Positions 14,854 through 52,508 of a stretch of 64,000 nucleotides of DNA are shown in pieces. The stretch is from assembly GCF_014489595.1 (NCBI RefSeq), contig NZ_CP060790.1, forward strand, positions 3,286,001 through 3,350,000, read 5' to 3'. The stretch is from Paenacidovorax monticola. Its GTDB lineage: Bacteria; Pseudomonadota; Gammaproteobacteria; Burkholderiales; Burkholderiaceae_C. The notes below the pieces were generated by a model that was given only the letters and a program-made list of their open reading frames with translations, did not search any database and was not told the origin of the DNA. The translations under genes were made by a program, and so were the position numbers. Numbering within the stretch: position 1 is the first letter of the stretch; each line of letters starts with the position of its first letter.

Positions 14854-16301
14854 ATGACCCAACACCCCAACCTCATCAACGGCGCCTGGACACCGGGCAA
14901 GTCCTACGCCCCCAACCTCAACCCCAGCCACCTCGCGGACGTGGTGGGCGAATACGCGCAAGGCGATGCGTCGGACGTGGATGCCGCCGTCGCCGCTGCC
15001 ACTGCCGCCTTTCCCGCGTGGAGCACCTCGGGCATTCAGGCCCGCTCCGACGCGCTGGACAAGATCGGCACCGAAATCCTCGCCCGCAAGGAAGAACTGG
15101 GCGAACTGCTGGCGCGCGAAGAGGGCAAGGTGCGCGGCGAAGCCATCGGCGAAGTCATGCGCGCAGGCCAGATCTTCAAGTTCTTCGCCGGTGAATGCCT
15201 GCGCCTGGCGGGCGAGACGATCCCTTCGGTGCGCCCCGGCATCGGCGTGGAGATCACGCGCGAGCCCATCGGCGTGGTGGGCCTGATCACGCCGTGGAAC
15301 TTCCCCATCGCCATCCCGGCCTGGAAGATCGCGCCCGCGCTGGCCTTCGGCAACTGTGTGGTCATCAAGCCCGCCGACCTGGTGCCGGGCTGCGCCTGGG
15401 CGCTGGCGGACATCATCCACCGCTCGGGCATTCCGGCAGGTGCGTTCAACCTCGTCATGGGCGGGGCCGCGTGATCGGCGATGCGCTGGTGCGCTACCCC
15501 GGCATCGCGGCCATCAGCTTCACCGGCTCGGTGGGCGTGGGCCGGGGCATTGCCGCCGCCTGTGTGGAGAACGGCAAGAAAGTGCAGCTGGAGATGGGCG
15601 GCAAGAACCCGCAAGTGGTGCTGGACGATGCCGACCTGAAGCAGGCCGTGGAGCTGAGCGCGCAAAGCTGCTTCTATTCCACGGGCCAGCGCTGCACGGC
15701 ATCGAGCCGCATCATCGTTACGGACAAGATCTATCCGGCCTTTGTCGAGGCGCTGAAAGCGCGCGTGGAGGCCATCAAAGTCGGTGCCGCACTGGCCGCA
15801 GGCACGGACATGGGGCCAGTCGTCAGCCAGGCACAGCTTGAACAGGACTTGAGCTACGTGGAGATCGGCAAGGCCGAGGGCGCGCAGTTGGTCACGGGCG
15901 GCAGCCGCATCGCCTGCCACACGGGCAGCGGCCACGAGGGCTTCTTCATGGCCCCTGCCCTGTTCGCCGACACCACGCCCGCCATGCGCATCAACCGCGA
16001 GGAGATCTTCGGCCCCGTGGCCAGCGTGATCCGCGTGAAGGACTACGAGGAGGCGCTGGCCGTGGCGAACGACACCGAGTTCGGCCTGTCGGCCGGCATC
16101 GCCACGACCAGCCTCAAGTACGCCACGCACTTCAAGCGCCACAGCCAGGCCGGCATGGTGATGGTGAACCTGCCCACGGCCGGCGTGGACTACCACGTGC
16201 CCTTTGGCGGCCGCAAGGGCAGCAGCTATGGCCCGCGCGAGCAGGGTCGCTATGCGCAGGAGTTCTACACCACGGTCAAGACCGCCTACACGCTGGCCTG
16301 A
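14854..16301 (+). pseudogene. Aldehyde dehydrogenase, alpha-ketoglutarate-semialdehyde dehydrogenase type, frameshifted
   Basis: One ALDH gene in two frames. Codons 1-206 end at a false TGA (15472-15474); the rest continues in another frame to TGA 16299-16301. Adding one C at 15461-15467 turns MGGAA-stop into MGRGRVIGDAL and gives a normal 482-residue protein. The second part has the catalytic glutamate motif LEMGGKNP and cysteine motif STGQRCTASSR, and ends with FGGRKGSSYGPREQG, as in type II alpha-ketoglutarate semialdehyde (2,5-dioxovalerate) dehydrogenases. It would complete the pathway by making alpha-ketoglutarate. Both parts are fully conserved on either side, so a sequencing deletion is more likely than a real null allele. 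It ends 4 bp from the convergent lipoprotein gene. Confidence 0.88.
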
Positions 16302-16305
16302 GCGA

Positions 16306-16815
16306 TCAGGGCCGGCGGAAGGCCGTTTTCTGCCGCGACCAGTAGCGCGCGTCCAGCCGGTCCATGCGCACCGTGCCGCCCGTCGAGGGCGCATGCACGA
16401 AGCGGCCCTCGCCCACGTAGATGCCCGCGTGCGTGGGGCGCCCCGCGCCGAAGACCACGAGGTCGCCCGTGCGCAGGCCGTCGCTGTCCACGGGCTGGCC
16501 GAAGTCGCTGAGTTGCGCCACGGTGCGCGGCGGCGCGATGCCCGCGCGGCTCTGGTACACGTAGCCGATGAGGCCGCTGCAGTCGAAGCCGCCCTCGGGC
16601 GTGTTGCCGCCATAGCGGTAGGGCGTTCCGACCAGGCCCAGCGCGTGGATGGCGATGTCGCTGGCCTGGTCCGGCGAGAGCCGGGAGTAGGCCGGGCCGC
16701 GCGCTGGCGCCGTGGGGGCGGTGCCGCAACCGGACAGCAGCAGCGCGGCCAGCAACAGCAGCAGGCCGGTCATCGTCCAGGATGCGGTCGGAAGGAATGT
16801 GGTGCGGGCATGCAT
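16306..16815 (-). CDS. NlpC/P60 family peptidoglycan hydrolase lipoprotein (Spr-like)
   Basis: A 169-residue secreted lipoprotein. A signal sequence ends in the lipobox LLSGC (cysteine at about 30). The NlpC/P60 domain has the catalytic cysteine in GGFDCSGLIGYVY (about 73), the histidine in PTHAGIYVG and a second histidine in FVHAPS. Such enzymes cut the D-Glu-mDAP bond in peptidoglycan stems. The ATG at 16815 gives a charged signal-peptide start; an internal ATG 15 codons later is a weaker alternative. It is convergent with the aldehyde dehydrogenase gene and divergent from the murA paralogue. Confidence 0.9.
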   Translation of the reverse strand: MHARTTFLPTASWTMTGLLLLLAALLLSGCGTAPTAPARGPAYSRLSPDQASDIAIHALGLVGTPYRYGGNTPEGGFDCSGLIGYVYQSRAGIAPPRTVAQLSDFGQPVDSDGLRTGDLVVFGAGRPTHAGIYVGEGRFVHAPSTGGTVRMDRLDARYWSRQKTAFRRP

Positions 16816-16977
16816 GGCCCCGAGGTTAGCGGATGCTCCCATGGCATGGAAGCCATGACCCCATGCCGCGCCCTGGAGGGCGCCGGCCTCCGGCATGGGA
16901 GCGCGGCAAGGTTTACAGTGGCGGGAACCGCACGCATGGCATCCCGCGCGCGCCCCATCCCATTCCTGCACCGCCCC

Positions 16978-18279: not shown

Positions 18280-18283
18280 ACGC

Positions 18284-19230
18284 ATGACGACCCCCAGCGA
18301 CACCGCTTCGGGCGCGAGCGCGGCCCCGCGCATCGCCGTCATGGGCGCCGGCGCCGTGGGCTGCTACTACGGCGGCATGCTCGCGCGCGCCGGGCACGAC
18401 GTGGTGCTCATCGGGCGGCCCGCGCATGTGGAGGCCGTGCGGCAGGGCGGCCTGCGGCTGCAAGCGCAGGCCTTCGACGAGCGCGTGCGCCTGGCGGCCA
18501 GCACCGACGCGGCCGCGGCGGCCGGCGCCCAGCTCGTGCTGCTGAGCGTGAAGTCCACCGACACCGAGGCCGCCGCCGCGCAGCTGCGCCCGCACCTCGC
18601 GCCCGGTGCGCTGCTCGTCACGCTGCAGAACGGCGTGGACAACGCGCGCCGCCTGCGCGCCGCGCTGCCAGGGCATGCGGTGGCAGCGGCCGTGGTCTAC
18701 GTGGCCACCGAGATGGCGGGCCCCGGCCATGTGCGCCACCACGGGCGCGGCGAGCTGGTCATCGAGCCCTCTGCGGCGAGCGAGGACGTGGCGCGTATGC
18801 TGCGCGCGGCGGGCGTTCCCACCGAGGTGTCCGACAACGTCGAAGGCGCGCTCTGGGCCAAGCTCATCCTGAACTGCGCGTACAACGCGCTCTCGGCCCT
18901 TGCGCGCATGCCCTATGGCCCCTTGCGCAGCGCGAGGGCGTGGCGGCCGTGATGAACGACGTGGTGGCCGAATGCCTGGCCGTGGCGCAGGCCGACGGCG
19001 TGCGCGTGCCCGGCGATGTGCAGGCGGCGGTGGCGGGCATCGCGCGCACCATGCCCACGCAGTATTCGTCCACGGCGCAGGACCTCATGCGCGGCCGCCC
19101 CACCGAGATCGACCACCTCAACGGCTACGTCGTGCGCCGCGGCGCAGCCCTGGGCGTGCCCACGCCCGCCAACCGGGTGCTGCACACGCTCGTCAAGCTC
19201 GTGGAGGCTCCGGCCGCCACGGCGCTATAG
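18284..19230 (+). pseudogene. panE: 2-dehydropantoate 2-reductase (ketopantoate reductase), frameshifted
   Basis: NADPH-dependent reductase of the pantothenate pathway or a close ApbA/PanE relative. Residues 1-214 give MGAGAVGCYYGGMLARAG (Rossmann motif, about 19-36), the catalytic lysine motif LLSVKSTDT and the C-domain WAKLILNCAYNALSAL. Then the frame breaks at about 18925. Adding one G (TTGCGCAG to TTGGCGCAG) joins it to EGVAAVMNDVVAECLAVAQ and the conserved tail STAQDLMRGRPTEIDHLNG, giving 315 residues and a normal end at 19230. It begins 4 bp after the murA paralogue. A sequencing deletion is the simplest explanation. Confidence 0.88.
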
Positions 19231-19285
19231 TGCCTGTGCGCCCCGGGGCGCGGCCAGGCCCTGGGGGCCAAGGAAGGAGCGTGCC

Positions 19286-20442: not shown

Positions 20443-20495
20443 TGCTGTTCCCCGCGCTCACGCACCGGCGCCCATTGTGAGGGCGGTGCGCCGGC

Positions 20496-23189: not shown

Positions 23190-23892
23190 GCAGCCTCCTC
23201 GCACTCGCCGAGCCAGCGGCCCAGCACGGCCTCGGCCGCGCGGGCCAGGGCCCGGCCTGGGCGGAGGCCGCCGCGCGCAGCGCAGCGGGGTCCACGCCCG
23301 CCGCCGCGAGCTCGCACGCATGGCCCACGAGCCAGGGCTCGATGCGCCGCAGGTCGGCCTCCAGATGGAACTGCAGCGCCAGCGCGTGCCGGCCCACGGC
23401 GAAGGCCTGGTGCGGGCACAGGTCCGTGGCGGCCAGGTGCCGCGCGCCCGGCGGAATGCCGAACTGGTCGCCGTGCCAGTGCATCACGGGCACGCCCGCC
23501 AGCGGCGCGAGCGCCGAGCGCTCGCCCTCGGCCGTGAGCCGCAGCGGCGCCAGGCCGATCTCCTTGTGCCCCATGGGCGCCACCGGCGCGCCCAGCGCGC
23601 GTGCCATGAGCTGCGCGCCCAGGCAGATGCCCAGCGTGGGCAGGCGCCGTGCCAGGCGCTGGCGCACCAGCGCGAGCCGCTCGCCCACCACGGGGTAGGC
23701 AGCCTCGTCGAACGCGCCGATGGGGCCGCCCAGCACCACGAGCAGGTCGGGCTGCGCGGCGGCCGAGGTGGGCGCGAGCGGCGCATCGCCCACGTCGTGG
23801 TAGCGCACCGCGTAGCCGCGCGCACGCAGCAGCGGCTCGATCAGGCCCAGGTCTTCGAACGCCACGTGGCGCAGCGCGAGCGCGGTCTTCAT
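23186..23892 (-). pseudogene. Class I glutamine amidotransferase domain protein, frameshifted near the 3' end
   Basis: GuaA-like class I amidotransferase fold. VVLGGPIGAFDE (about 55), the nucleophile elbow LGICLGAQLMARALG (cysteine about 88) and the histidine-glutamate pair LQFHLEAD (about 172) are all present. The frame breaks at 23254-23255; one extra G (plus strand CCCGG to CCCGGG) joins it to the tail ALARAAEAVLGRWLGECEEAA, giving 235 residues whose stop overlaps the MOSC ATG, as expected for the real end. The start ATG at 23892 is chosen over that at 23898 because AGGAA lies directly before the latter. It is divergent from the PtsJ-like regulator. The substrate is unknown. Confidence 0.85.
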
Positions 23893-23931: not shown

Positions 23932-25249
23932 ATGATTTCATTGTACGTTCAGGGCTCCGGCGCTGCCGAAATCGCCGACAGCCTGGCCGCGCAGTTGCAG
24001 GCCGGCGCGCTGCAGCCCGGCGATGCGCTGCCCGCAGTGCGGGCGCTTGCCCGGCAGCTCGGCGTGAACCCCAACACCGTGGCCGCGGCCTACGCGCGCC
24101 TGCGCGACGCGGGCCGCGTGGTGACCGACGGCCGGCGCGGCACGCGCGTGGCGGGCCTGGCACCGCCGCTTGCGCAGGCCCCTGCCCTGCCCCCGGGGCT
24201 GCGCGACCTGGCCAGCGGCAACGTGGATGCGGCCCTGCTGCCCGTGCCGCGCGCCGACTGGTGGCCCGCACTGCATTCCGGTGCGGGCTACGACGGCCCC
24301 GCCGAGGTGCCCGCCTGGCAGGACGAGGCGGCCGCGTGGCTGGCCTCGCAGGGCCTGCCGGGCGGGGCGGTCGCCACCTTCTCGGGCACGCTGGACGCCG
24401 TGGAGCGCGCGCTGCGCCTGCACGCGCGGCCCGGCGACCGCGTGGGCGTGGAAGACCCCGGCTGGCCGCCCCTGGTGGCGCTGCTGCACAGCCTGCGCTT
24501 GCGCCCGGTGCCGCTGCCCATCGACGCGCAGGGGCTGTGCGTGCCCGCGCCCGAGGTGCTGGGTGCCTGCGCGGCCCTGGTGCTCACGCCGCGCGCGCAC
24601 AACCCCACGGGCGTGGCGCTGGGCGCCGCGCGCTGGAAGGCGCTGCGCAAGGCCCTGCAGCGCCATCCGCAACTGCTCGTGGTGTTCGACGACCACTGGG
24701 GGCCGCTCAGCGCGGCGCCCCTGGCGTTCTCGGGGCGGCGGGCTCGCTGCCGCCGCTGTGGCTCTACGTCGCGTCGGTGGGCAAGTTCCTGGGGCCGGAC
24801 CTGCGGCTGGCGCTCGCGGCGGGGCCGGCCAGCCTCGTCGAGCCCCTGCGCGCGCAGCAGGCCGTGGGGCCGCGCTGGGTCAGCCGTCTGCTGCAGGCCC
24901 TGGCGGCGCGGCTGTGGCGCGGTGCGCGCGAGGACGGCACGCTGGAGCGCGCACGCGCCACCTACGCCGCGCGGCGCGGCGCCCTGCAGCTGGTGCTGCG
25001 CGCCGAGGGCGTGGACTGCCCCCCGGGGGCGAGGGCCTGCACCTGTGGCTGCCCGTGGCGGACGAGGCCGCCGTCGTCACGGCCCTGGCCGCGCGCGGCT
25101 GGGCGGCCCAGGCGGGCGCGCCGTTCCGCCTGGCGAGCGCACCGGCCGTGCGCATCAGCCTGGGCGCCCTGCGCGAGGGCGACATGCCCCGGCTCGCGCG
25201 CGACCTGGCCCAGGCCCTGGCACCCGCGCCGGGGCGGGCCGTGTTCTGA
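23932..25249 (+). pseudogene. PtsJ-like GntR/MocR regulator with aminotransferase domain, two frameshifts
   Basis: A GntR winged helix (residues 1-75, PAVRALARQLGVNPNTVAAA) fused to a fold-type I aminotransferase domain. LTPRAHNPTG (about 218) and the PLP lysine region VGKFLGPDLRLAL match Salmonella PtsJ, a PLP-binding regulator linked to pyridoxal kinase. The frame breaks twice: G4 at 24732-24735 should be G5, and C6 at 25019-25024 should be C7. The restored protein is 439 residues and ends at 25249. No pdxK is adjacent; the divergent amidotransferase is the likely target. Both breaks are in G/C runs, so sequencing error is likely. Confidence 0.85.
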
Positions 25250-25957: not shown

Positions 25958-26313
25958 TCAGGCCTTCTTGAGGAATTCCGACTTGAGCAGCATGCTGCCC
26001 AGCTCGGTCTTGCAGTCCACGTTGTGGCCGTCGGCGCCGTCCACCAGGCGGATGCCCTTGATCTTGCTGCCCTTCTTGAGCACGGTGGACGAGCCCTTGA
26101 CCTTGAGGTCCTTCACCAGGATCACGGCGTCGCCGTCGGCCAGCGGGTTGCCGTTGGCGTCGCGCACGGTGCCGTCGCCCTCGGGGGCGTCGGCCTGTGG
26201 TTCATCGGCCTGCATGGGCCATTCGAAGGCGCAGTCGGGGCAGATGTAGCTGGCGCCGTCGGGGTAGGTGTTCTCCAGGCCGCATTGGGGGCAGGCGGGG
26301 TGGTGTGGGGCAT
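25958..26313 (-). pseudogene. yjdM: Zinc-ribbon protein YjdM (PhnA family), frameshifted at codon 6
   Basis: PhnA/YjdM family. A zinc ribbon CPQC...CPDC near the N-terminus is followed by [11 protein letters not shown] and [19 protein letters not shown], closely matching E. coli YjdM. The body of the frame lacks a suitable start; the ATG at 26313 (MPHTTP) is one base out. Adding one C to the C4 run at 26297-26300 (minus-strand C) gives [17 protein letters not shown], a natural 118-residue protein. An alternative in-frame ATG further upstream would add an Arg-rich tail not seen in the family. Function is poorly known; despite the old name it is not phosphonoacetate hydrolase. Confidence 0.82.
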
Positions 26314-26435
26314 TGGGATCGTCGGTGCAAAAAAGGGATCGAAGGGCGGCGGACCGCCGTGCGCGCGGCGCGCGCATGGTCCGATTGTCGCTGCTGCGCA
26401 CGCGCGCGCCCTCTGGCGGATCGCCCGGCGCGTAC

Positions 26436-28603
26436 TCAGGCTGCCGCGCGCCGCTCCAGCGCGAACGGCGGCAGGCCCTTGAGCAGGCGCTGGCCGTAGC
26501 TGGTGCGCACCAGGCGTTTGTCGTAGCAGTACACATGCGCCTGGTCTTCCTCGGTGCGGATGGCGCGGCCCACCCATTGCGCCAGGCGGATGGCCGTGGC
26601 GGGCACCACGAGTTCGCTGAACGGGTCGCGCCCCGCGCCGCGCAGCCATTCGGCGCGCGATTCGCCCACGGGGTCGTCGGGCGGCGCGAAGGGCAGCTTG
26701 GTGATGAACAGCGACTCGCACAGCGTACCCGGCAGGTCCAATCCCTCGCCGAAGGACTGCATGCCGAAGATGATGGACGGCTCGCCCATGGCCACGCGCT
26801 CGCGGTGGCGCGCCAGCAGCTGGGTGCGCGGCAGCGCAGTCTGCACCAGCACCACGCCGCGCATGGCGGTGGAGAGCGCGTCCACGGCCTGGCGCATCTG
26901 TTCGCGCGAGGTGAACAGCACCAGAGCGCCGGCCTGCACGCGCGCCAGGTCGGTCAGCAGCGCCTCCACCATGTCGGCCGTGAAGGCGCGCGCCTCGCGC
27001 GGGTCGGCGCGCGTTTCGGCCGCGATCAGCGTGCCCTGGCGCGCGTAGTCGAAGGGCTGGGTACCTCCAGCGTGGTCACGGCGGCATCGCCGTGCAGGCC
27101 GGCTTCGCGCAAGAAGAAATCGAACTGCCCGCAGCTCGTGAGCGTGGCCGAAGTGAGCACCGCACCGCGCACGGCCGACCACAGGTGATGGCGCAGCGTG
27201 TTGCCCGGCAGCACGGGGCTGGCGTGGGCCTTGACCACGATGAAGTCGCCGTCCACCTCCAGCGTGAACCACTTGGCGGCCGGAGGCGCACCCTCGGGCG
27301 CGTCCTGCAGCAGCAGCTGGGCCGTGGCGTGCACGGACTCCAGGCGCGGCGCGAGCGCGCCGATCTGCGCGTACAGCGTGGACAGGCGGCGCGCCTCGTC
27401 GGGTTGGTCGCGGATTTCGGCGCGCAGCGCCTTGGAGATGGCGCGCAGCGCGTCCAGAAAGCCCGAGGCATGGTGCGCGGCCTGCGACAGCGGCTCCACC
27501 AGCGCCTCGGGCAGCACCCCGCGCGGCACGCGCACGCGCGCCGGGCCCCAGGCGTCCTTCTGGGCCTTGAGCTGTTCGCCCCACTGGTCCATCACCAGGC
27601 GCGCGAGGTCCTGCATCTGGGTGCGCAGCCGGGCCGCGTGGTTGGGAATGTCGGCCACCTCCTCCACCTCGACCAGGGTGCCCACGCGCAGCGCGCGGCT
27701 GGCCAGGCGGTCGATCCAGGTCAGGCGCGAGAGGTCCATCTCGCAGGCGAACTGGGCCAGCGCCGTGGTGGGCAGGTGGTGGGCCTCGTCGAGCACGAGC
27801 AGGCAGTTGTCCAGCTCGGGCAGCAGCCGCGCGCCGATGGAGGACAGCAGCAGGTCGTGGTTGGCCACGATCACCTGCGCGGCCACCAGCGCCTTGCGCC
27901 GGTCGTAGTAGGTGCATTGGCTGAAGGCCGGGCAGTGCTTGCCCGTGCAGGAGCTGGCCTCGGCCGCCACGGGGCTCCAGGCCTCGGGCTCGGGTGGCGT
28001 GGCCAGGCTGTCGCGGTCGCCGTCCCACACGGCGGTGGCCAGCGCGTCGGCCATGCTCTTGTAGAACTGCATGCGCGCCTCGGTCTCCTGGAGCGGGCGG
28101 GCGGTGCGCGCGGCCGCCTCTTCCTCGGCGAACAGGTCGTCGTCGGCCGGGTCGTGCGCCTCGCCCGTGCCGGCCAGGCGCTCCAGCTTGAGCTTGCACA
28201 CATAGCGCCCGCGCCCCTTGGCCAGCGCGAACCGGAAGGGCTGCTCCATCTGCGCGGCGAGCGCGGGCAGGTCCTTGTTCACGAGCTGCTCCTGCAGCGC
28301 CACCGTGGCCGTGGAGATGAGCACGCGCGTGCCGCGCGCGAGCGCCATGGCGATGGCCGGCACGCTGTAGGCCAGCGACTTGCCCACGCCCGTGCCCGCC
28401 TGCACCACGGCAATGGCCCGTACGGGCTCGCGCTCGGGCTCCGCCTCGCCCTCCTCCACCTTGCCGAGCTGGGCCAGGCTGAAGGTGTGCGCCACCTGCT
28501 CGGCCATGCGCCGCTGGCCGGCGCGGCTGCGAAACCCTTCGGTGGCGCCCACCACCGCATCGAACGATTGCAGGGCCTGCGCGGCCCATTCCTGTTGAGA
28601 CAT
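26436..28603 (-). pseudogene. dinG: DinG-like ATP-dependent DNA helicase, frameshifted
   Basis: XPD/DinG-type superfamily 2 helicase. Walker A is AGTGVGKSLAY (about 73-83), the DEAH box LVLDEAHHLP (about 270), and four cysteines (YVCK, SSCTGKHC, SQCTYYD) form the expected iron-sulfur cluster. Motifs [13 protein letters not shown] and [12 protein letters not shown] lie in the C-terminal helicase domain. The frame breaks at 27054-27056: plus-strand G3 should be G4 so that EVPSP continues as FDYARQGTLIAAETRADP. The restored length is 722 residues, normal for proteobacterial DinG. It unwinds 5'-3', for example at R-loops. Divergent from the GGDEF gene. Confidence 0.92.
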
Positions 28604-28700
28604 ACAGTAGTGTGGCACGGCCCGCATGCCCCGGCGGCCCGCCGGGTACTGGAAGGGCTCGGGCACAATGGGCCGACCGCCGTTGACCGTTCACGATCCC

Positions 28701-29911
28701 ATGCCTCGCCCCTCCGCCAGCGCCACGCCGCCGTTGGAAGGCTCCACGGCCCAGTGCCGGCACGAGCTGCAGGGGCGGTTCCGCGCGCTGCGCTTCGCCC
28801 CGGAGCTGGAGTCCGAATTCGTCGCCTTCCTGCGCCAGTCGCAGCGCCGCAACCTGCTGGGCTGCATGGTGCTGGCCCTGGTCGTGCTGCTGGTGTTCGC
28901 GGGGCTCGACCTGCCGCGCTTTCACCTGGTGCAGGGCACGCCGCAGGAGCCGCTGTTCTACCGCGGCATCCTCGTGCCGCGCTGGGCCACCGTGGCCCTG
29001 CTCGCCATTGGTACCTGGGCCGTGGCCACGCGCCGCGTGGAGCGCCGCTGGGTGCCGCTGGTGCTCTTCCTGATGGTGGCCTACGGCGTCCAGATCTTCG
29101 TCATCACCAACGTCTTCATGAACCTGGGCCTGCCCTACGCCACGGGGGCCAGCCTGCTGCTGGTGATGGTGGTGTTCTACCCCTGCGGGCTCACCTTCTA
29201 CGAGGAGCTGGCCGTCGCGCTGACCATGTGGGTGCTGGCGCTGGGCCTGGGCGTGGCCATGCTGCAGCCCGCGCACCTGGGCACGCACTGGATGCAGGTC
29301 GTGCTCATGCTGCTGGCGCTGGGCCTGTCGGCCACCAACGGCTACATGCGCGAGCATGCGATGCGCGAGCAGTACCTCATGCGCCGCCTGCTCGACTGGG
29401 AGGCGGGCCACGACCCCCAGACCGGGCTGGCCAACCGCCGCACCTTCAGCGACCGGGGCCCCTCCGGTCTGCTGCAGGCGCAGCGCGAGGGGGTGCCGCT
29501 CGCGCTCGCGCTGGTCGATGTGGACCATTTCAAGGCCTACAACGACCGCTACGGCCACCAGGCCGGCGACGAGGCGCTGCGCCAGGTGGCCCTGCTGCTG
29601 GGCCAGCAGGCCCGCCGCCCGCTGGACCTGGCCGTGCGCATGGGGGGCGAGGAGTTCGCGCTGTTCGCCTACGGGACGATGCCGCCTCGCTCGGCGCGCG
29701 GCTGCAGCAGCTGATCGACGGGCTGCGCGCGCTGGCGATCGCGCACGCGGCCTCGCCCACGGCGCCCTGGCTCACGGTGAGCGTGGGCATCGCCCAGGCC
29801 GACGCCGACGACACCATCGACCGCCTGTACCAGCGTGCCGACACCCTGCTCTACCGCGCCAAGGCCGCGGGCCGCAACCGCGTCGAGGTGCAGCCGGGGC
29901 GCGGCGCCTGA
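28701..29911 (+). pseudogene. Membrane-bound diguanylate cyclase (GGDEF), frameshifted
   Basis: About five or six hydrophobic segments (residues 50-215) are followed by a GGDEF domain: DPQTGLANRRTF, LVDVDHFKAYNDRYGHQAGD and the active-site motif RMGGEEFALFAYG, so c-di-GMP synthesis is likely. The frame breaks at 29673-29675; G3 should be G4, which joins ...FAYG to DDAASLGARLQQLIDGL and the closing VSVGIAQADADDTIDRLYQRAD, restoring 403 residues. No inhibitory RxxD site is obvious before GGEEF. The ATG at 28701 is chosen; an in-frame ATG at 28662 is possible. Convergent with hom, 11 bp between stops. Confidence 0.88.
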
Positions 29912-31788: not shown

Positions 31789-31827
31789 GGGCGCAGCATG
31801 CCACGCCGGACGCTACAGTGCGGGCCT

Positions 31828-32131: not shown

Positions 32132-32781
32132 TCAGCGCAGCTCCCCGTCCGCGCGGCGCATGGCCTGCACGAGCGGCGCCTGCCCGCGCGCGTCCAGCGC
32201 CGCGATCGTGCCCTCGCGGTCGCGCGGCTCGCGGTTCTGGCCGAGCTTGCGCTTGCCCTCCAGCCGTGTGATGCGCACCTCGATGCCCACGATGGCGCGC
32301 AGCATCTGGTCCAGAAAATCGGGCGGTGCGTCGCCCATCTTCCAGGGCCGGTGCCCGCCGGCCTGGTGCGCGTGCCCTTCATGCGTGTGCGTGAGGCGCG
32401 CCACCACGCCGCGCACATGCTTTTCGTCATCGTGGACGGTGAGCGTGCCGTGCGCGTGCACCACCTCGTAGTTCCAGGTGGGCACGGCGCGGTGCGCCTC
32501 GTGCTTGCTGGGGTACCAGTTGGGCGAGATATAGCCCTCGGCCCCCGGAACACCACCAGCACCTCGCTGCCCGAAGGCACGGCCTGCCACAGCGGGTTGG
32601 CGCGCGCCACATGGGCGATCAGCGTGCCGTGCGGGCCCGCATCGGGGTCGAGGTGGAACGGCAGATGGTTGGCGTCCAGCCCCTGGGGCCCTGCCGTGCA
32701 GAGCATGCCCAGCGGGTGGGCGCGCAGGATGCGGTGCAGTTCCTCGGGGCGGGTTTCGGCGAAATGCGGCGGAATGTACAT
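32132..32781 (-). pseudogene. FMN-binding negative transcriptional regulator (PaiB family), frameshifted
   Basis: PaiB-type flavin-binding split-barrel protein. The start MYIPPHFAETRPEELHRIL and QGLDANHLPFHLD are typical. The frame breaks after LVVFRG: plus-strand C5 at 32542-32546 should be C6, which gives AEGYISPNWYPSKHE and the rest (TWNYEVVHAHGTL, LDQMLRAIVGIEVRI). The restored protein is 216 residues. It is divergent from a MocR/PdxR-type regulator; this pair is a recurrent arrangement, so the MocR protein probably controls it. Confidence 0.87.
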
Positions 32782-34893: not shown

Positions 34894-37539
<2,646 letters not shown>

Positions 37540-37564
37540 CTATCAGTAGGTATCCAATAGGCCA

Positions 37565-37600
37565 TTTGCGCAGGTGGGGTCTGCGCAAACAGCTATCAAT
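37565..37600. repeat. Dispersed CAGCTAT-type repeat, copy in dnaN-gyrB gap
   Basis: TTTGCGCA (37565-37572) and TGCGCAAA (37582-37589) form an 8-bp hairpin followed by CAGCTATCAATAGT. The string GCGCAAACAGCTAT is shared exactly with the copy at 25286-25299. It sits in the 133-bp gap between dnaN and gyrB, which should also hold the gyrB promoter. Confidence 0.72.
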
Positions 37601-37633
37601 AGTGTAGTAATCGGAGAAACGGTCCTCGGTCCG

Positions 37634-38752
37634 TCAGATGCGCATGGGCATCACGACGTACTTGAAGTTGTCGTTGTCCGGAATGGTCATCAGCGCGGAG
37701 CTGTTGCCATCGGCCAGGTCCACCTTCACCATGTCCTGGCCCATGTTGGCCAGGGCGTCGATGAGGTAGGTCACGTTGAAGCCGATCTCGATGGTGTCGC
37801 CGCCGTAGTCGATGTCCAGCTCGTCCACGGCTTCTTCCTGCTCGGCGTTGTTCGACGCCACGCGCAGCAGGCCGGGCTCCAGGTTCAGGCGCACGCCCTT
37901 GAACTTGTCGCTGGTCATGATGGCGGTGCGCTGCAGGCTGGCCAGCAGCGGCGCGCGGCCCAGGGTCACGCTGTTGTGGTGGTTGCGCGGGATCACGCGG
38001 TTGTAGTCGGGGAACTTGCCTTCCACCAGCTTGGTGACGAACTCCATGCCGCCGAAGGTGAACTTCGCCTGGTTGTTGGCGAACTGCATCTCGATGTGGG
38101 GCTGGTTGTCGCCGCCCGCGTCGGACAGCAGGCGCTGCAGCTCGATCACGGTCTTGCGCGGCAGGATGACTTCCTGCTTGGGAACTTCCACGTCGAGCGT
38201 GGCGCTCGCGAACGCGAGGCGGTGGCCGTCGGTGGCCACCAGGCTGAGCTGCTTGCCCTCGGCCACGAACAGGATGCCGTTGAGGTAGTAGCGAATGTCC
38301 TGCACCGCCATGGCGAACGAGACCTGGCCCAGCAGGTCCTTGAGCACCTTCTGCGGCACGCTGAAGGCGGGACCGAAGGCGGCCGATTCCTGCACCAGCG
38401 GGAAGTCCTCGGCCGGCAGGGTCTGCAGCGTGAAGCGGCTTTTGCCGCCCTTGAGGATGATCTTGTTCTGGCTCGACTCCAGGCTCACGGTCTGGTCGCC
38501 GGGCATGGTGCGCAGGATGTCGATGAGCTTGCGCGCGCCCACGGTGGTCGTGAAGTCGCCCGTGTCGCCCCCCAGCTCGGCCGTGGTGCGGATCTGGATT
38601 TCCAGGTCGCTGGTGGTGAGCTGCAGCGCGTTGCCCGTCTTGCGGATCAGCACGTTGGCCAGGATGGGCAGCGTATGGCGGCGCTCGACGATGCCGGACA
38701 CCGACTGCAGAACCGCGAGAACCTTGTCTTGTGTTGCCTTCAGGACAATCAT
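37634..38752 (-). CDS. dnaN: DNA polymerase III beta sliding clamp
   Basis: A 372-residue clamp with three repeated domains. It starts [31 protein letters not shown] and ends in the usual VVMPMRI, the conserved C-terminal clamp motif. It forms the ring that tethers replicative polymerase to DNA. It lies 130 bp downstream of dnaA and 133 bp upstream of gyrB, all on the minus strand. Confidence 0.98.
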
Positions 38753-38882
38753 GTCAACCTCTTGTGGTTTTGGGGAGGGCGCTTGGACGGCGGCACCCCG
38801 GCGTGCCCCCTCGTGCCGTCCAACCCGCCATTTTGCCCCTGAAAGGGGCTGTTTCCGCCGCCGGGCCGATCCACCTGTGGGG

Positions 38883-40304
38883 TCACCCCTTCAGCGTCTG
38901 TTCCAGCACGTGCAACTGCTGGTTCAGCTCGGTCAGCTGCTGGCGCTCGCCCGCGATCTTGCGCACCGCGTGCAGCACGGTGGTGTGGTCGCGCCCGCCG
39001 AACAGTTCCCCGATCTCGGGGAGGCTCTTCTGCGTCAGCTCCTTGGCCAGGTACATGGCGATCTGGCGCGGCCGGGCGATGCTGGCCGGGCGCTTCTTGC
39101 TGTACATGTCCGCCACCTTGATCTTGTAGTAATCTGCGACGGTCTTCTGGATGTTCTCCACCGAAATCTGGCGGTTCTGGATGGACAGCAGGTCGCGCAG
39201 GGCCTCGCGCGCGAGTTGGATCGACACTTCCTTCTGGTTGAAGCGCGAGTAGGCCAGGATCTTGCGCAGCGCGCCTTCGAGCTCGCGCACGTTGGAGCGC
39301 ACGTTCTTGGCGACGAAGAACGCCACCTCCTCGGGCATCTCGGCGCCCTCGGCGCGGGCCTTGTTGATCAGGATGGCCACGCGCATTTCCAGCTCGGGCG
39401 GCTCCAGCGCCACGGTCAGGCCCGAGTCGAAGCGCGACACCAGGCGGTCGTGGATGTTCGCCAGGCCCTTGGGGTAGGTGTCCGACGTCATCACGATGTG
39501 GCTCTTCTTGGCCAGCAGCGCCTCGAAGGCGTTGAAGAACTCCTCCTGCGTGCGGTCCTTGTTGGCGAAGAACTGCACGTCGTCGATGAGCAGCAGGTCG
39601 AGCGAGTGGTAGCGCTCCTTGAACTCGTCGAAGGTGCGGCGCTGGTACGCCTTAACCACATCCGAAACAAATTGTTCGGCGTGGATGTAGAGAACTTTGG
39701 CGTCGGGCCGGTCGGCCAGCAGGCGGTTGCCCACAGCGTGCATCAGGTGGGTCTTGCCCAGGCCCACGCCGCCGTAGATGAACAGCGGGTTGTACAGGTG
39801 GCCGGGCGAGCCCGCCACATGCATGGCGGCCGAGCGCGCCATGCGGTTGGCCGTGCCTTCCACGAGCGTTTCGAAGGTGAGCGCGGCGTTGAGCCGCGTG
39901 CGGAACACGCCGGGCGTGGCGTCCTCGCCGCCGCCGTTGGACGGGGGGGGCTCGGCGCTCGGCGTGGGCTCCGATGCCACGGGGCGAACATAAGTGCGGG
40001 TAACGGCTTCGCGCTGAGCAAGCGCTAACTCCAGAGTGATCGGCTGGCCGTACAGGGCCTCCAGCAGGGCCGAGATGCGGCCCGCGTACTGCGCGCGGAT
40101 CCAGTCGAGCTTGAAGCGGTTGGCGACCAGCAGCGTGATCTTGGAGAAGTCGGGCGCCACCTGGGCCGTCAGGGGCTTGATCCAGGTGTTGAACTGTTGT
40201 TCAGGAAGATCCTGCGCCAGTTGTTCGACGCAGGCCTGCCATAGTCCCTGGCCGGCGTCGGCGCCGTCGGTGTCCATGGCATTGCGGGGAGGTTCCTCGG
40301 TCAT
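38883..40304 (-). CDS. dnaA: Chromosomal replication initiator DnaA
   Basis: A 473-residue initiator. Domain I lies at 1-95, a proline/acid-rich linker around 115-140, and the AAA+ domain holds Walker [16 protein letters not shown] (about 178) and Walker [11 protein letters not shown] (about 240). Domain IV carries the DNA-binding signature [16 protein letters not shown] near residue 440. It binds DnaA boxes at oriC to open the origin. A perfect box lies 66-74 bp upstream of its start, pointing to autoregulation. Confidence 0.98.
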
Positions 40305-40640
40305 TGAAGGGTGTTTTTGTTGTGGATAGGAGGAACGTTCTGGGCTGCGGATTGTAGCTTGTCAAAAAGTTATCCACAATCTGGCGGGTGCTGGCGCGCG
40401 GCAGGCGCGGGCGGGGAAATGCCGCCGCCCGTGCGGGAAAATCCACCAGGGCATTGCCATGTGCGGGCAACGCTGCGATAATCGCGGGTTTCCCTGAATG
40501 TGTTCAGGGTGATATGACCCGGCCGATCGTTTGGCGCTTGGCGGGTGACGCCGCAATCCTGCCATCGCGCCCGCCCGCTCAGGGGCCTACGGGGCGACCG
40601 CCAGGGCCGGCCTGGAACTGAACCTCTCAAGGAATCGACC
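40305..40640. other. dnaA-rpmH intergenic region, possible oriC or dnaA control region
   Basis: 336 bp between the divergent dnaA and rpmH genes hold both promoters. One perfect DnaA box, TTATCCACA (40370-40378), and one with a single mismatch, TGTGGATAG (40321-40329, reversed), flank a short AT-rich stretch. A full origin normally has more boxes, and I find no cluster of them, so this may only be the dnaA autoregulatory site. The remainder (about 40380-40640) is GC-rich apart from GCTGCGATAATCGC near 40468-40481 and an inverted repeat CCCTGAA-TGTG-TTCAGGG at 40493-40510. Confidence 0.5.
40370..40378 (+). promoter_or_regulatory. DnaA box
   Basis: Perfect 9-mer TTATCCACA, upstream of dnaA. 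A one-mismatch copy in the opposite orientation lies at 40321-40329. Confidence 0.8.
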
Positions 40641-40775
40641 ATGAAACGTACCTACCAACCTTCCAAGACGCGCCGCGCACGTACCCACGGTTTCCTCGTT
40701 CGCATGAAGACCCGTGGCGGCCGTGCCGTCATCAACGCACGCCGCGCCAAGGGCCGCAAGCGCCTGGCCGTCTAA
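40641..40775 (+). CDS. rpmH: 50S ribosomal protein L34
   Basis: A 44-residue, Arg/Lys-rich ribosomal protein starting [19 protein letters not shown] and ending [10 protein letters not shown]. It matches L34 over its whole length. AAGGA precedes the ATG. It is the first gene of the rightward rpmH-rnpA-yidD-yidC operon. Confidence 0.98.
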
Positions 40776-40840
40776 GGCCGGCACGGCTGGGTGGCCTGCC
40801 ACCGGCCCGCTGGCCCGCAGTCCCCTCGGGGGCGCTTGTG

Positions 40841-41293
40841 ATGCAACGGCTGAAAACGCGCGCGCAGTTTCAGGCTGCCATGGCGGGGGGCGTGGTCTCC
40901 CGTACAGCGCATTTCGCGCTGCACCGCTTGGTGCTGGAGGCCGATGACGCCGCCGCGACGCCTTCGACAGGGCCCGGCTCCTTGCCCGCAGTGCAAGGGC
41001 CGCAGGCCCTGTTTGGCGTTCCCGGGCCGTGGCTGGGGGCCATGGTGCCCAAGCGCTGGGCCCGCCGCGCGGTGACGCGCAACGCCATCAAGCGGCAGAT
41101 CTATGCCGTGTCCGCCGCGTTCGAGGCGCAGCTGCCGCAAGCGGCCTTCGTGGTGCGCCTGCGCACCACCTTCGACCGCAAGCAGTTCGTGAGCGCCTGT
41201 TCCGAGCCGCTCAAGCTGGCGGTGCGGACCGAGTTGCAGCAGCTGTTCACCCACGCGGCGCGGCGCGCGTCCCTGGCGCAGGCCCGGCCATGA
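40841..41293 (+). CDS. rnpA: Ribonuclease P protein component
   Basis: A 150-residue basic protein that assists the RNase P RNA in trimming tRNA 5' ends. It starts MQRLKTRAQFQAAMAGG; the conserved RNR-like motif is RRAVTRNAIKRQIYAV (about 75-90). An acidic and proline-containing insert around residues 33-58 is longer than in E. coli. ATG 41290 of yidD overlaps its stop (ATGA). Confidence 0.95.
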   Translation: MQRLKTRAQFQAAMAGGVVSRTAHFALHRLVLEADDAAATPSTGPGSLPAVQGPQALFGVPGPWLGAMVPKRWARRAVTRNAIKRQIYAVSAAFEAQLPQAAFVVRLRTTFDRKQFVSACSEPLKLAVRTELQQLFTHAARRASLAQARP

Positions 41294-41583
41294 TGCGCGT
41301 CCTGCTCATGGCCCTGGTGCGGGGCTACCGGCTGACCCTGAGCCCCTGGCTGGGGTCGGCCTGCCGCTTCGAGCCCACCTGCTCCGCGTACTCGCTGCAG
41401 GCGCTGGAGCGGCACGGCGCGGCAGCCGGCAGCTACCTGACCCTGCGCCGCCTGGTGCGCTGCCATCCCTGGTGCGACGGGGGGCATGATCCCGTGCCGC
41501 AGGAACCACCCCGGTTCTTTTCGCGTCTGACTTCGGCTCCGGCCTCGACCACCCAATCTTCCTCACCAAAGAAGTCTTCATGA
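41290..41583 (+). CDS. yidD: Membrane protein insertion efficiency factor YidD
   Basis: A 97-residue short amphipathic protein. The core LVRGYRLTLSPWLGSACRFEPTCSAY and RLVRCHPWCDGGHDPVP are diagnostic, with three conserved cysteines. It helps YidC-dependent insertion. It overlaps rnpA upstream and yidC downstream by 4 bp each, so all are translationally coupled. Confidence 0.95.
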   Translation: MMRVLLMALVRGYRLTLSPWLGSACRFEPTCSAYSLQALERHGAAAGSYLTLRRLVRCHPWCDGGHDPVPQEPPRFFSRLTSAPASTTQSSSPKKSS

Positions 41584-43283
41584 ACGACATTCGCCGCACC
41601 ATCCTGTGGGTGATTTTTGGCTTTTCCATGGTTCTGCTGTGGGACAAGTGGCAAGTGCACAACGGCCACAAGGCCACCTTCTTTCCCACGGCCACGCCGG
41701 TGACGGCGCCGGCGGCGCAGGCATCGGCTTCGGCGGCCACCGGGGCAGCCAGCGTGCCGGGCACGTCCAGCGCGGCGGGTGCCGGCGGCGCCCAGGTGCC
41801 GGGTGGCGCGCCCGCCTCGGCGGCGGCGCCCGTGGCGGCGCGCGAGCGCGTGACGGTCACGACCGACGTGCTGCGCCTGACGTTCGACAGCGAGGGGGGA
41901 TCGCTGGGCCACGCGGAAATGCTGCGCCTGGCCGACATGGCGGACAAGAGCCGGCCCTTCGTGCTGTTCGACGAAAGCGCCCAGCGCGTCTACATGGCGC
42001 AGACCGGCCTGATCGGCGGCGCCTTCCCCACGCACAAGACGCCCATGGCCGTGGTGCCCGGTCCGCGCGAGCTCAAGGACGGCCAGGATGAGCTGAGCAT
42101 CCGCTTCGAGTCGCCCGACCTGGGCGGCGTGAAGCTGGTCAAGACCTGGACGCTCAAGCGCGGCGCCTACGACGTTGCCGTGCGCCACGACGTGGTGAAC
42201 ACGGGCAGCGCGCCCGTGGCGCCGCAGCTGTACCTGCAGCTGGTGCGCGACGGCAACAAGCCGCCCGGAGAGTCCTCGTTCTACTCCACCTTCACGGGCC
42301 CGGCCGTCTACACCGACGCCAAGAAGTACCAGAAGGTCGAGTTCAAGGACATCGAGAACGGCAAGGTCGACATCGAGAAGAGCGCCAGCAACGGCTACGT
42401 GGCCATGGTGCAGCACTATTTCGCCAGCGCCTGGCTGCTGGCCGACGGCGTGCAGCGCGACCTGTTCATGCGCAAGGTGGACAACAACCTGTACTCCGTG
42501 GGCATGATCACCAACGTGGGCGAGATCGCCCCCGGCCAGTCCAAGACCGTGGACGCACGCCTGTTCGCCGGCCCGCAGGTCGAGAAGACGCTGGAGGCGC
42601 TGGCCCCTGGCCTGGAACTGGTCAAGGACTATGGCTGGCTCACCATCCTGGCCAAGCCGCTGTACTGGCTGCTCGACCAGCTGCACAAGATCCTGGGCAA
42701 CTGGGGCTGGTCCATCGTGGGCCTGGTGCTGCTGCTCAAGATCGCTTTCTACTGGCTCAACGCCAAGGCCTACGCCAGCATGGCCAAGATGAAGGCCATC
42801 AACCCCAAGATCATGGAGATGCGCGAGCGCCTCAAGGACAAGCCGCAGCAGATGCAGCAGGAGATGATGCGCATCTACCGCGAGGAGAAGGTCAACCCGA
42901 TGGGCGGCTGCTTCCCCATCATGATCCAGATCCCCGTGTTCATCGCGCTGTACTGGGTGCTGCTGTCGAGCGTGGAAATGCGCAACGCGCCCTGGATCGG
43001 CTGGATCCATGACCTGTCCACCCCCGACCCGTTCTTCATCCTGCCGCTGCTGATGACGCTGTCGTCGCTGCTGCAGACCGCGCTGAACCCCGCGCCGCCG
43101 GACCCGATGCAGGCCAAGATGATGTGGATCATGCCGCTGATGTTCAGCGTGATGTTCTTCTTCTTCCCGGCCGGCCTGGTGCTGTACTGGCTCACGAACA
43201 ACATCCTGTCCATTGCCCAGCAGTGGATCATCAACAAGCGCATGGGCGTGCCGCCGCAGTTCAACCTGCCGAAGTTCCGCTGA
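41580..43283 (+). CDS. yidC: Membrane protein insertase YidC/Oxa1
   Basis: A 567-residue inner-membrane insertase. The N-terminal membrane anchor (about 5-22) is followed by an Ala/Pro-rich linker, a periplasmic beta-supersandwich domain (about 85-360) and five C-terminal membrane segments including GWSIVGLVLLLKIAFYWLN with the conserved hydrophilic-groove arginine in the KMREM/EMRERLKDK region nearby. It inserts inner-membrane proteins with or without SecYEG. An intrinsic terminator follows directly. mnmE, usually next, is 10 kb away on the other strand. Confidence 0.97.
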   Translation: MNDIRRTILWVIFGFSMVLLWDKWQVHNGHKATFFPTATPVTAPAAQASASAATGAASVPGTSSAAGAGGAQVPGGAPASAAAPVAARERVTVTTDVLRLTFDSEGGSLGHAEMLRLADMADKSRPFVLFDESAQRVYMAQTGLIGGAFPTHKTPMAVVPGPRELKDGQDELSIRFESPDLGGVKLVKTWTLKRGAYDVAVRHDVVNTGSAPVAPQLYLQLVRDGNKPPGESSFYSTFTGPAVYTDAKKYQKVEFKDIENGKVDIEKSASNGYVAMVQHYFASAWLLADGVQRDLFMRKVDNNLYSVGMITNVGEIAPGQSKTVDARLFAGPQVEKTLEALAPGLELVKDYGWLTILAKPLYWLLDQLHKILGNWGWSIVGLVLLLKIAFYWLNAKAYASMAKMKAINPKIMEMRERLKDKPQQMQQEMMRIYREEKVNPMGGCFPIMIQIPVFIALYWVLLSSVEMRNAPWIGWIHDLSTPDPFFILPLLMTLSSLLQTALNPAPPDPMQAKMMWIMPLMFSVMFFFFPAGLVLYWLTNNILSIAQQWIINKRMGVPPQFNLPKFR

Positions 43284-44748: not shown

Positions 44749-45308
44749 GCCGCGCCGTCCGCCAGCAGGGCGGCGTAGCGGCCGCGGGCCACCAGCAGCA
44801 GGTCGCAGAACTCGCGCACGGCACCATCGCCCCCCGCGCCTGGGTGGTCACATGGGCCACGGCCCGCACCTCGGCATGGGCGTTGGCGGGTGCACCGGCG
44901 AGCGCACAGCGCCGCAGCATGGGCAGGTCGGGCCAGTCGTCGCCCATGGCGGCGGCCTGGTGCCAGCCCAGGCCCAGGCTGGCGAGGATCTCCTCGGCCG
45001 CGGGGCGCTTGTCCTCGGTGCCGAAGCGCGCGTGCGCCACGCCCAGCGCCTTGAGGCGCAGGCGCAGCGCGGGCGAATCGCGGCCCGTGACCACGGCCGG
45101 CGTGACGCCGGCCTGCTGCAGCAGCTTGATGCCGTGGCCGTCCAGCGTATGGAAGCGCTTGATGGTCTCGCCGGCCTCGGTGAAGTACAGGCCGCCGTCG
45201 GTCAGCACGCCGTCCACGTCGAAGAAGGCCACGCGCACGTCCTGGGCACGCAGCAGCAGTTCGGGCGCGGGGCACAGCACGGGGCCAGGGGGGCAGAGGG
45301 GCCTGCAT
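44745..45308 (-). pseudogene. kdsC: 3-deoxy-D-manno-octulosonate 8-phosphate phosphatase KdsC, frameshifted
   Basis: HAD-family phosphatase of Kdo synthesis. VRVAFFDVDGVLTDG holds the nucleophile and acid/base aspartates; VTGRDSPALRLR and MGDDWPDLPML complete the site. Near the C-terminus plus-strand C6 (44830-44835) should be C7, joining it to GGDGAVREFCDLLLVARG. The start also looks damaged: the ATG at 45308 overlaps the kdsD stop (TGATG) but is out of frame with the body; one extra C in each of two C runs (45288-45293 and 45281-45284) gives MQAPLPPLAPVLCPAPELLL and a 188-residue protein. Without this correction the body would start at a GTG (45280). Confidence 0.88.
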
Positions 45309-48342: not shown

Positions 48343-48366
48343 GGCGGACCGGCCTCGCCCAGGCGG

Positions 48367-50904: not shown

Positions 50905-51060
50905 GAACCACCAACCCTCGCGCAAGCAGCCGACCGCCCCGGGGCGCCGCGACGGCAGCGCGCAAAGGGCGGTCCCATTATGGGGCAGCGGAAGCATCTG
51001 TTTACACTGGGGCCCGTTTTCAGCCTTCCGGCGGCCCCGGGCGTGCCGCCCCCCGAATCC

Positions 51061-51615: not shown

Positions 51616-51618
51616 GGC

Positions 51619-51656
51619 GGGCGGTCCGCCAACCGTCTGGCGCCGCCGGACCGCCC
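51619..51656. repeat. GC-rich inverted repeat between apt and the convergent unknown gene
   Basis: GGGCGGTCCG (51619-51628) and CGGACCGCCC (51647-51656), perfect 10-bp arms with an 18-bp loop. No T run follows, so termination is only possible. Confidence 0.55.
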
Positions 51657-51667
51657 CACGCGAGGCG

Positions 51668-52508
51668 TCAGTTCAGGTCGCCGTACTGGGTGCGGCTGAG
51701 GTCGGAGGTGTGGGAGTCGGACTCCGGCATCTCCGTGTCCTCGAACCCCGTGGGCGAGAACGTGGAAGGCTGCATGAGCGGCCCCGTGCGCACGGCTACC
51801 CCGGGGGCGGCGGTGCGGCCACCGGCGCCGCTGCGGCGGCCTGCGTCAGGGCCCGCTTGAAGGCTGCCACCTCGTCGGCCTCGATGGGCTCGAAGCGCGG
51901 CGCAGGGCGCGCGGGCAGCAGCGGTGCGGCCGCCACGGGCGCGGCGGGCGGCGCCGATGTGATCACGGGCGACGCCGGTGCAGGCGCCGGAGGCACCACG
52001 GGCGGTGCCACGGGGCGCGGCATGGGCCGGGGCGCCAGGCTGGGGGCACTGCGGGCGCCGTGGCGCCCTTCTGGGGCTGGCCCACGGCCACATGGTCGTT
52101 GATGCGCCAGTACACGGCGGTGACGAGGATGTCGAAGCGCGACTTGGCCGTCTGGGCGATCAAGGCCTCGATCTCGGACAGGCGCGTGGTCTCTCCGCCG
52201 TACTCGCGCGCGAGATCGACCATCACGAGGAACTGGCGGCCGCGCTGGTCCAGCGAGAGCACCTTGAACTTGTAGCTGGCCGAAAGCACGCCCGCGCGCA
52301 CCATGGCGTCGCGCACCACGGTGTAGAGCAGTTCACGGCGCTCCATGCGCTCGTTCTTGCGGTTGGCGGCCGGATCGGAAGGCGGCGGAGCCGCACGGCC
52401 CGGCGCCAGCGGCACCGTGGCATCCGCGTTCAGCAGGCCGCTGGGCTCCATCCCCGAGCGGGGCTTGGGTGGAGCGGGCTTGCGGGAGAACCAGCCAAAC
52501 AGTGACAT
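51668..52508 (-). pseudogene. Unrecognised protein, two frameshifts
   Basis: I do not recognise this gene. It starts MSLFGWFSRKPAPPKP. After a Pro/Ala-rich linker comes a conserved-looking alpha/beta block of about 90 residues (RELLYTVVRDAMVRAGVLSA, YKFKVLSLDQRGRQFLVMVD, SRFDILVTAVYWRINDHV), then a second Pro/Ala-rich stretch and a hydrophilic tail (FEPIEADEVAAFKRALTQ, FEDTEMPESDSHTSD). Two breaks, at 52042-52046 (G5 should be G6) and 51799-51802 (C4 should be C5), must be closed to read 280 residues to the TGA/TAA at 51668. No signal or membrane segment is visible. It lies between apt and a cyclic-nucleotide-binding protein gene. Confidence 0.6.

What the first reader, a model, noticed from the sequence alone, without database searches (positions are those of the whole stretch)
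14854..52508. At least twelve one-base deletions in C/G runs break ten genes
In aldehyde dehydrogenase (15461-15467), panE (18925), amidotransferase (23254), ptsJ-like (24732-24735 and 25019-25024), yjdM (26297-26300), dinG (27054-27056), GGDEF (29673-29675), paiB-like (32542-32546), kdsC (44830-44835, perhaps two more at 45281-45293) and the unknown gene (51799-51802 and 52042-52046), one added C or G restores a full-length, conserved protein. All are deletions, none insertions, nearly all in runs of C or G. Essential kdsC is among them. This fits consensus error, not decay, so these genes should be treated as probably intact.
Basis: partly seen in the sequence, partly recalled or inferred. 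Interest (0 to 1): 0.75.

Follow-up and report, generated by a model that had tools for sequence, protein, structure and literature searches.

The report
Missing bases from genome assembly errors
The broken genes in this stretch are almost certainly not broken in the living bacterium: the assembled sequence lost single letters in short runs of C or G in many places of the genome, an ordinary sequencing error.

Summary
Eleven of the 12 named sites, in 9 of 10 genes, hold: relatives' intact genes align only if the window lacks one base. yjdM is undecided (only its first residues are in question); the tentative extra kdsC sites are not supported. The effect is not local. A codon model deletions and 1 insertion in 400 kb from 20 other places of the contig (14 of 20 hit), against 3 deletions and 1 insertion in 873 kb of eight relatives; simulation recovers 52 of 78 deletions and 59 of 78 insertions. 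Core genes are cut too: the best dnaE match is in five pieces, lgt (only copy found) in three, each step one base short modulo three; rpoC is intact. The three rRNA operons carry six one-base deletions at five C/G runs that another copy keeps at full length; five of the six, at four runs, lie inside 16S or 23S, where aligned relatives keep the length too. Untranslated rRNA argues against recoding; core-gene and rRNA damage makes real decay very unlikely. Verdict: under-called C/G runs in the consensus.

The parts
14854..16301 (+). aldehyde dehydrogenase gene, open frame broken near 15457-15467, one base short beside a GGGG run
   Evidence: 10 of 10 aligned relatives need a one-base deletion; Pfam Aldedh 1-193 in one frame, 190-460 in another; the codon model did not call this site
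18284..19230 (+). panE-like ketopantoate reductase gene, broken near 18920-18925
   Evidence: one true orthologue, L113; ApbA_C split 1-36 | 32-125; codon model, weak score
23190..23898 (-). class-I glutamine amidotransferase gene, broken near 23240-23254, close to its C-terminus
   Evidence: one true orthologue, L251; codon model; GATase domain
23932..25249 (+). ptsJ-like (GntR plus aminotransferase) regulator gene, broken near 24735 and near 25020
   Evidence: one true orthologue, L140, needs both deletions; codon model calls both; GntR and part of Aminotran_1_2 in the first frame
25958..26320 (-). yjdM (PhnA-like) gene; claimed break at 26297-26300 would affect only the first residues; undecided
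   Evidence: Zn ribbon and PhnA domain lie in one frame; five alignments from four genomes run from about 26299 without a shift
26436..28666 (-). dinG-like helicase gene, broken near 27054-27063
   Evidence: 8 of 8 spanning alignments, 6 genomes; DEAD and DEAD_2 in one frame, Helicase_C_2 in another; codon model
28701..29911 (+). GGDEF protein gene, broken near 29667-29680
   Evidence: 9 of 10 alignments show one deletion, the tenth the same net shift; GGDEF 2-90 | 98-161 in two frames; codon model
32132..32781 (-). paiB-like FMN-binding protein gene, broken near 32537-32546
   Evidence: 5 of 5 true relatives; FMN_bind_2 1-83 | 79-168 in two frames; codon model
44749..45280 (-). kdsC-like phosphatase gene, broken near 44830-44842; no support for further breaks at 45281-45293
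   Evidence: relatives from G003 and G019, and a G009 frame running over the kdsC/lptC overlap; codon model
51668..52508 (-). conserved gene of unknown function, broken near 51803 and near 52048
   Evidence: relatives from G009, G017 and G022 need both deletions; G003 gives the same net frame with another placement of the second; no Pfam family; not called by the codon model

Best explanation
The breaks are errors in the assembled consensus, not mutations in the organism. The consensus under-counts runs of C or G by one base, and the longer the run, the more often it happens: taking the longest run near each call, about 10 of 2115 runs of four, 10 of 453 of five, 9 of 74 of six and 1 of 7 of seven (events plus intact runs). 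In the sample this happens at about one detected place per 13 kb. Each missing base throws a gene out of frame, so gene finders would see fragments. Shown here: the deletions, their run context, the deletion bias, the spread over the sampled genome, deletions in rRNA genes, and breaks in core genes. Inferred: that the source is homopolymer under-calling in a long-read-based assembly (single 4.68-Mb contig, error pattern); the sequencing method is not known to me.
For: Deletion bias: 30 deletions to 1 insertion in 400 kb of the same genome (14 of 20 stretches hit; counts per 20 kb mean 1.5, variance 1.53) against 3 deletions and 1 insertion in 873 kb of eight relatives (3 of 44 stretches hit). 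Simulated changes are recovered in 52 of 78 (deletions) and 59 of 78 (insertions) cases. Context: 30 of 30 sample deletions have a C/G run of 3 or more within 12 nt (59% expected), 19 of 30 one of 4 or more (16% expected, P = 7e-9), 0 of 30 an A/T run of 4 or more within 12 nt and 1 of 30 within 18 nt. rRNA operons: five one-base indel sites, all C/G runs of four or five; six deletions in all (copy A none, B two, C four). Four sites lie in 16S or 23S (five deletions), the fifth 18 nt past the 5S gene. Core genes: best dnaE match in 5 pieces (4 steps), lgt in 3 (2 steps), purD in 2 (1 step), every step one base short modulo three; acetolactate synthase and a TonB receptor split with both halves seen. 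Residues on both sides of well-supported window breaks stay conserved (for example 227 of 239 identical around the aldehyde dehydrogenase site).
Against: No reads were available, so no site is proved individually. rpoC, in a frame of 1417 codons, is unbroken, as is the ribosomal S9 match, and gyrB, dnaN and dnaA show no shift inside the gene, so errors are sparse. Slippage mutations also favour long runs, so run context alone does not discriminate. The overall run-length spectrum shows only mild depletion of long C/G runs, and relatives show similar dips. An earlier homology pass over the same sample with few relatives gave 12 clusters, 9 deletion-type and 3 insertion-type modulo three; one of the three (L189:10571) faces a deletion call in G003's own gene (L215:11863), the other two (L183:7065, L189:8279) were not resolved. 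A/T runs are spared, but only 276 A/T runs of four or more lie in coding sequence in the sample, so C/G specificity is weakly tested.
Confidence: 0.97

Rival explanations
1. Real gene decay: a lineage prone to replication slippage (for example lacking mismatch repair) is losing genes through one-base deletions in C/G runs.
For: Breaks sit in C/G runs and become more frequent with run length, as slippage would.
Against: dnaE and lgt are hit several times each; conserved 16S and 23S runs are hit in individual copies; 30:1 deletion bias although insertions are at least as detectable; residues beside well-supported breaks stay conserved. Substitution-type damage was not measured.
Confidence: 0.02
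2. Recoding: the ribosome or RNA polymerase slips at C/G runs, so that broken frames are still read through to full-length proteins.
For: dnaE and lgt need several shifts, all in the same direction.
Against: One-base losses of the same kind occur in 16S and 23S rRNA genes, which are not translated; 2105 runs of four and 443 of five lie in coding sequence in the sample, about ten of each original size having a called shift; relatives of the same family show few such breaks.
Confidence: 0.005
3. Mixed case: nearly all breaks are errors, but one or a few of the window's accessory genes (yjdM, the unknown gene, the PaiB-like gene) are truly damaged.
For: Relatives show a low background of real or apparent breaks (3 deletions and 1 insertion in 873 kb).
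Against: That background predicts well under one break in 64 kb; the sites share the same one-base C/G signature.
Confidence: 0.05

Closest known systems
Gene-fragmenting indel errors in long-read assemblies (Kastor study, PMC12007338; passages read)
   Same: Most indels are false deletions, highly associated with homopolymers, most often after four to five equal bases, breaking genes in a bacterial genome.
   Different: In their Pseudomonas syringae assembly deletion errors were about twice as common after A/T as after C/G stretches; here every located deletion is beside C/G runs, in a genome of about 69% G+C. Insertions and substitutions are reported there in number; here insertions are rare and substitutions were not examined.
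Homopolymer indels and frameshift errors in Nanopore consensus assemblies and MAGs (PMC9262707; abstract and passages read)
   Same: Homopolymer indels cause frameshifts, and a genome can still reach a high quality tier, as here (completeness 99.11).
   Different: The sequencing method of this genome is not known to me, so membership is by pattern only.
Pseudogenes formed by slippage in mutator or host-restricted bacteria (recalled, no call)
   Same: One-base indels in homopolymers.
   Different: Expected to spare rRNA and essential genes and to include insertions and other damage; the first two are not met here.

Membership tests
homopolymer under-calling error in an assembled consensus | one-base deletions greatly outnumber insertions | tested here: met
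   30 to 1 in 400 kb, with detection of both kinds calibrated; before per-event scoring 32 to 3
homopolymer under-calling error in an assembled consensus | sites lie in homopolymers and rate rises with run length | tested here: met
homopolymer under-calling error in an assembled consensus | scattered over the genome irrespective of gene function, core genes and rRNA included | tested here: met
   14 of 20 sampled stretches, dnaE, lgt, purD and rRNA operons; rpoC is spared
homopolymer under-calling error in an assembled consensus | accurate reads disagree with the consensus at the sites | not testable with these tools
   no reads are held
real pseudogenes from slippage | essential genes and rRNA spared by selection | tested here: not met
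   best dnaE match has four breaks, lgt two, 16S and 23S genes five deletions; essentiality is recalled from E. coli
real pseudogenes from slippage | same breaks in close relatives | tested here: inconclusive
   family relatives that align are open at all 11 sites, but none of the 39 other genomes returned is of the same genus, so strain-level sharing is untested
programmed frameshifting | shift sites occur only in translated sequence | tested here: not met
   deletions of the same kind in 16S and 23S rRNA genes

The most novel reading that the evidence does not exclude
A small part of the C/G-run deletions is real: the lineage lacks a repair function that guards G/C runs and tolerates a changing set of frameshifted accessory genes, on top of ordinary consensus error.
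Probability: 0.02. Interest if true: 0.35.

Novelty: not a real feature. Interest (0 to 1): 0.08.

Why it matters
As biology it does not: the genes should be treated as probably intact. In practice it matters for anyone who uses this genome. Scaling 30 sample deletions in 400 kb by the simulated recovery (52 of 78) gives roughly 500 false breaks in the 4.68-Mb contig (my arithmetic), so counts of pseudogenes, missing enzymes or absent essential genes taken from it would be wrong, even though its completeness score is 99%.

Tried and rejected
Homopolymer length spectra: G000 shows only mild depletion of C/G runs of six or more compared with a Markov expectation, and relatives show similar dips; not decisive.

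Dependence on local GC (the idea that short-read polishing fails where GC is high): 0.061 per kb at 65-70% GC and 0.092 at 70-75%, with 0.125, 0.032 and 0.125 in the three thinner bins; not established. Clustering inside 14854-52508 was not tested as such; counts over the genome sample have mean 1.5 and variance 1.53 per 20 kb, so chance scatter is enough.

Sequence context beyond runs (a methylation-type motif): the base after the G run is C in 31 of 41 events against 65% in the background; weak, not pursued.

Unfiltered six-frame comparison gave many false calls from antisense and shadow frames in this G+C-rich DNA; coding-potential filtering and frameshift-aware alignment replaced it. A homology pass over the genome sample with few relatives gave 12 clusters, 3 of them insertion-type; not used for the count. 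The codon model before per-event scoring gave 32 deletions and 3 insertions in the sample, 9 deletions in the window, and 5 deletions and 2 insertions in 800 kb of controls; one search keeps only events that gain more than 4 nats, and its control set left out two stretches (L151 with 1 deletion, L152 with 1 insertion) and added six others.

A possible extra site at 31823 was first counted (n = 12) and then set aside, because the acylphosphatase gene seems to start there and relatives differ in spacing upstream; one search repeats the count with 11. A codon-model call at 41530, which I read as the yidD/yidC junction, is gone. Apparent shifts in the first 15 kb (1890-1916, 2897, 4993, 6172, 8718) lie at gene starts or junctions; parts of 7.1-8.2 kb and 10-13.7 kb had no aligned relative there.

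Of five literature searches, one search returned nothing and searches returned one off-topic paper each.

Full report
The window is bases 3286001-3350000 of a single 4,679,990-base contig with a completeness score of 99.11. Its gyrB is nearest to members of the Comamonadaceae group. Of the 39 other genomes returned as relatives 23 are of the same family and 16 of the same order, none of the same genus.

Check of the sites. I collected syntenic or homologous DNA from family genomes, kept open frames with coding character, and aligned their proteins to the window with a small aligner that allows one- and two-base shifts. Aldehyde dehydrogenase (10 of 10 rows), dinG (8 of 8 spanning rows, 6 genomes), the PaiB-like gene (5 of 5 true relatives) and kdsC (6 of 6 spanning rows, 3 genomes) are the best supported. 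For GGDEF 9 of 10 rows show one deletion and the tenth an equivalent net shift. panE, the amidotransferase and the ptsJ-like gene rest on one true orthologue each; their remaining rows are low-scoring shadow-frame or paralogue alignments, or belong to the next gene, some with other shifts. For the unknown gene three genomes need both deletions, while G003 has one deletion and two insertions, the same net frame. Four Pfam families are split over two frames at adjoining profile positions, and the dinG domains lie in two frames. In yjdM both domains lie in one frame and five alignments from four genomes show no shift from about 26299 on: undecided. The extra places at 45281-45293 lie between kdsD and kdsC: the G019 relative aligns through to 45298 without a shift, and the apparent two-base difference to G003 appears where its frame, read from stop to stop, runs on into the kdsD region; I read it as a spacing difference.

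Near the 11 sites the 147 alignments hold 29 one-base deletions and 2 insertions; elsewhere they hold 19 deletions, 19 insertions and 11 two-base shifts, 47 of the 49 at or upstream of gene starts or junctions (compared with the start positions), which I take as noise from stop-to-stop frames.

Chance. Within 8 nt of the 11 sites a C/G run of four or more occurs at 7 (random positions 9.6%, P = 2e-5), and an A/T run of four or more at none.

Is it local? I trained a codon-based hidden Markov model that permits frameshifts at a cost and scored each call against the best path without it. In the window it deletions and no insertion; all 8 are among the 11 sites confirmed by homology, and it misses the aldehyde dehydrogenase site and both sites of the unknown gene. 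In 20 stretches of 20 kb spread over the same contig it deletions and 1 insertion; 14 of 20 stretches are hit and the counts are Poisson-like. In 873 kb from eight relatives it deletions and 1 insertion, in 3 of 44 stretches. Artificial one-base changes in G003 were recovered in 52 of 78 deletions and 59 of 78 insertions, so the deletion bias is not made by the method. The 30 sample deletions all have a C/G run of at least three within 12 nt (59% expected); 19 have one of at least four (16% expected, P = 7e-9); none has an A/T run of four within 12 nt, one has within 18 nt. Taking the longest C/G run near each call, the rate rises steeply with original run length: 10 beside 2105 intact runs of four, 10 beside 443 of five, 9 beside 65 of six, 1 beside 6 of seven or more. 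Against this clean picture stands an earlier homology pass with 3 insertion-type clusters among 12; one of them faces a deletion call in the relative's own gene (L215:11863), the other two are unresolved.

Are the breaks compatible with life? Four genes were looked up in the whole genome; lgt and purD were chosen because the sample had already shown them broken, dnaE and rpoC without such knowledge. rpoC is unbroken. purD is in two pieces. lgt, with no other copy found, is in three pieces, profile 5-72, 70-104, 104-273; the codon model sees one of its two steps. The better dnaE match is in five pieces, 1-67, 84-587, 576-662, 662-846, 845-1019; a second, lower-scoring unbroken match elsewhere is probably the error-prone paralogue (inference). 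The codon model calls all four dnaE steps as deletions, beside one unscored insertion-type call on the other strand at L270:401. All seven steps are one base short modulo three. Essentiality of dnaE and lgt is recalled from E. coli. In the sample, acetolactate synthase, purD and a TonB receptor are seen with both halves in two frames, and coproporphyrinogen oxidase, glutathione reductase and cysteine synthase give partial matches that start or end near the breaks (30 open pieces given, 3 without a family).

The untranslated test. The genome has three 23S genes. The operons are 99.8-99.9% identical. Apart from substitutions, nearly all in one stretch before the 16S gene, they differ at five one-base indel sites, every one a C or G run of four or five: one in 16S, three in 23S and one 18 nt past the 5S gene. 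Copy A has the full run at all five, B lacks two bases, C four; five of the six deletions are inside 16S or 23S. Relatives that align over the sites have no deletion: 1 of 1 at the 16S site and, at the 23S sites, 7 of 7, 12 of 12 and 16 of 16 (at the last, three rows of G030 have the same length with another base); at the fifth site only copies A and B serve as reference. Ribosomal recoding cannot explain deletions in rRNA genes, and three in one 23S gene would be surprising in a working operon.

Conclusion. The consensus drops a base in C/G runs in many places of the genome. This matches what is published for long-read assemblies: most indels are false deletions associated with homopolymers (PMC12007338, passages), and frameshift errors can persist in genomes that score as high quality (PMC9262707, abstract and passages). 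Which technology was used I cannot say. The difference from the Kastor case, A/T runs spared here, is only weakly tested: 276 A/T runs of four or more in coding sequence in the sample, where about four events would be expected at the C/G rates (my arithmetic) and none was seen.

Its range and its essential-gene example should be widened: breaks occur in 14 of 20 places sampled over the genome, and dnaE, lgt and rRNA are the convincing cases.

Noticed in passing
34894-43283: gyrB, dnaN, dnaA (minus strand) and a yidC-like gene (plus strand) form the usual origin neighbourhood in mid-contig (3.32 Mb), so the assembly was not rotated to the replication origin; names of dnaA, dnaN and yidC are recalled from order and size, gyrB is from Pfam.
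   Followed up: partly
L226, L227, L228 (three rRNA operons): The operons carry 0, 2 and 4 one-base C/G-run deletions; one of the four in the third copy lies just past 5S, in what looks like a terminator hairpin.
   Followed up: yes
31820-31830: Relatives differ by one base in spacing just before the apparent acylphosphatase start; possibly one more lost base, outside a gene.
   Followed up: partly
L186:3612: The single insertion-type frameshift call in the 400-kb genome sample; not checked by homology.
   Followed up: no
L261:5547 and L261:19001: Two deletion-type calls in one 20-kb stretch of relative G015, unlike most other control stretches; that draft may have similar errors.
   Followed up: no
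L215:11863: Relative G003 has a deletion-type call in its own acetolactate synthase gene, opposite an apparent insertion in G000 (L189:10571).
   Followed up: partly
L265 to L273: lgt in three pieces and the best dnaE match in five pieces in the same genome; a second, unbroken dnaE-like match lies at 1226935-1229886 (L271).
   Followed up: partly
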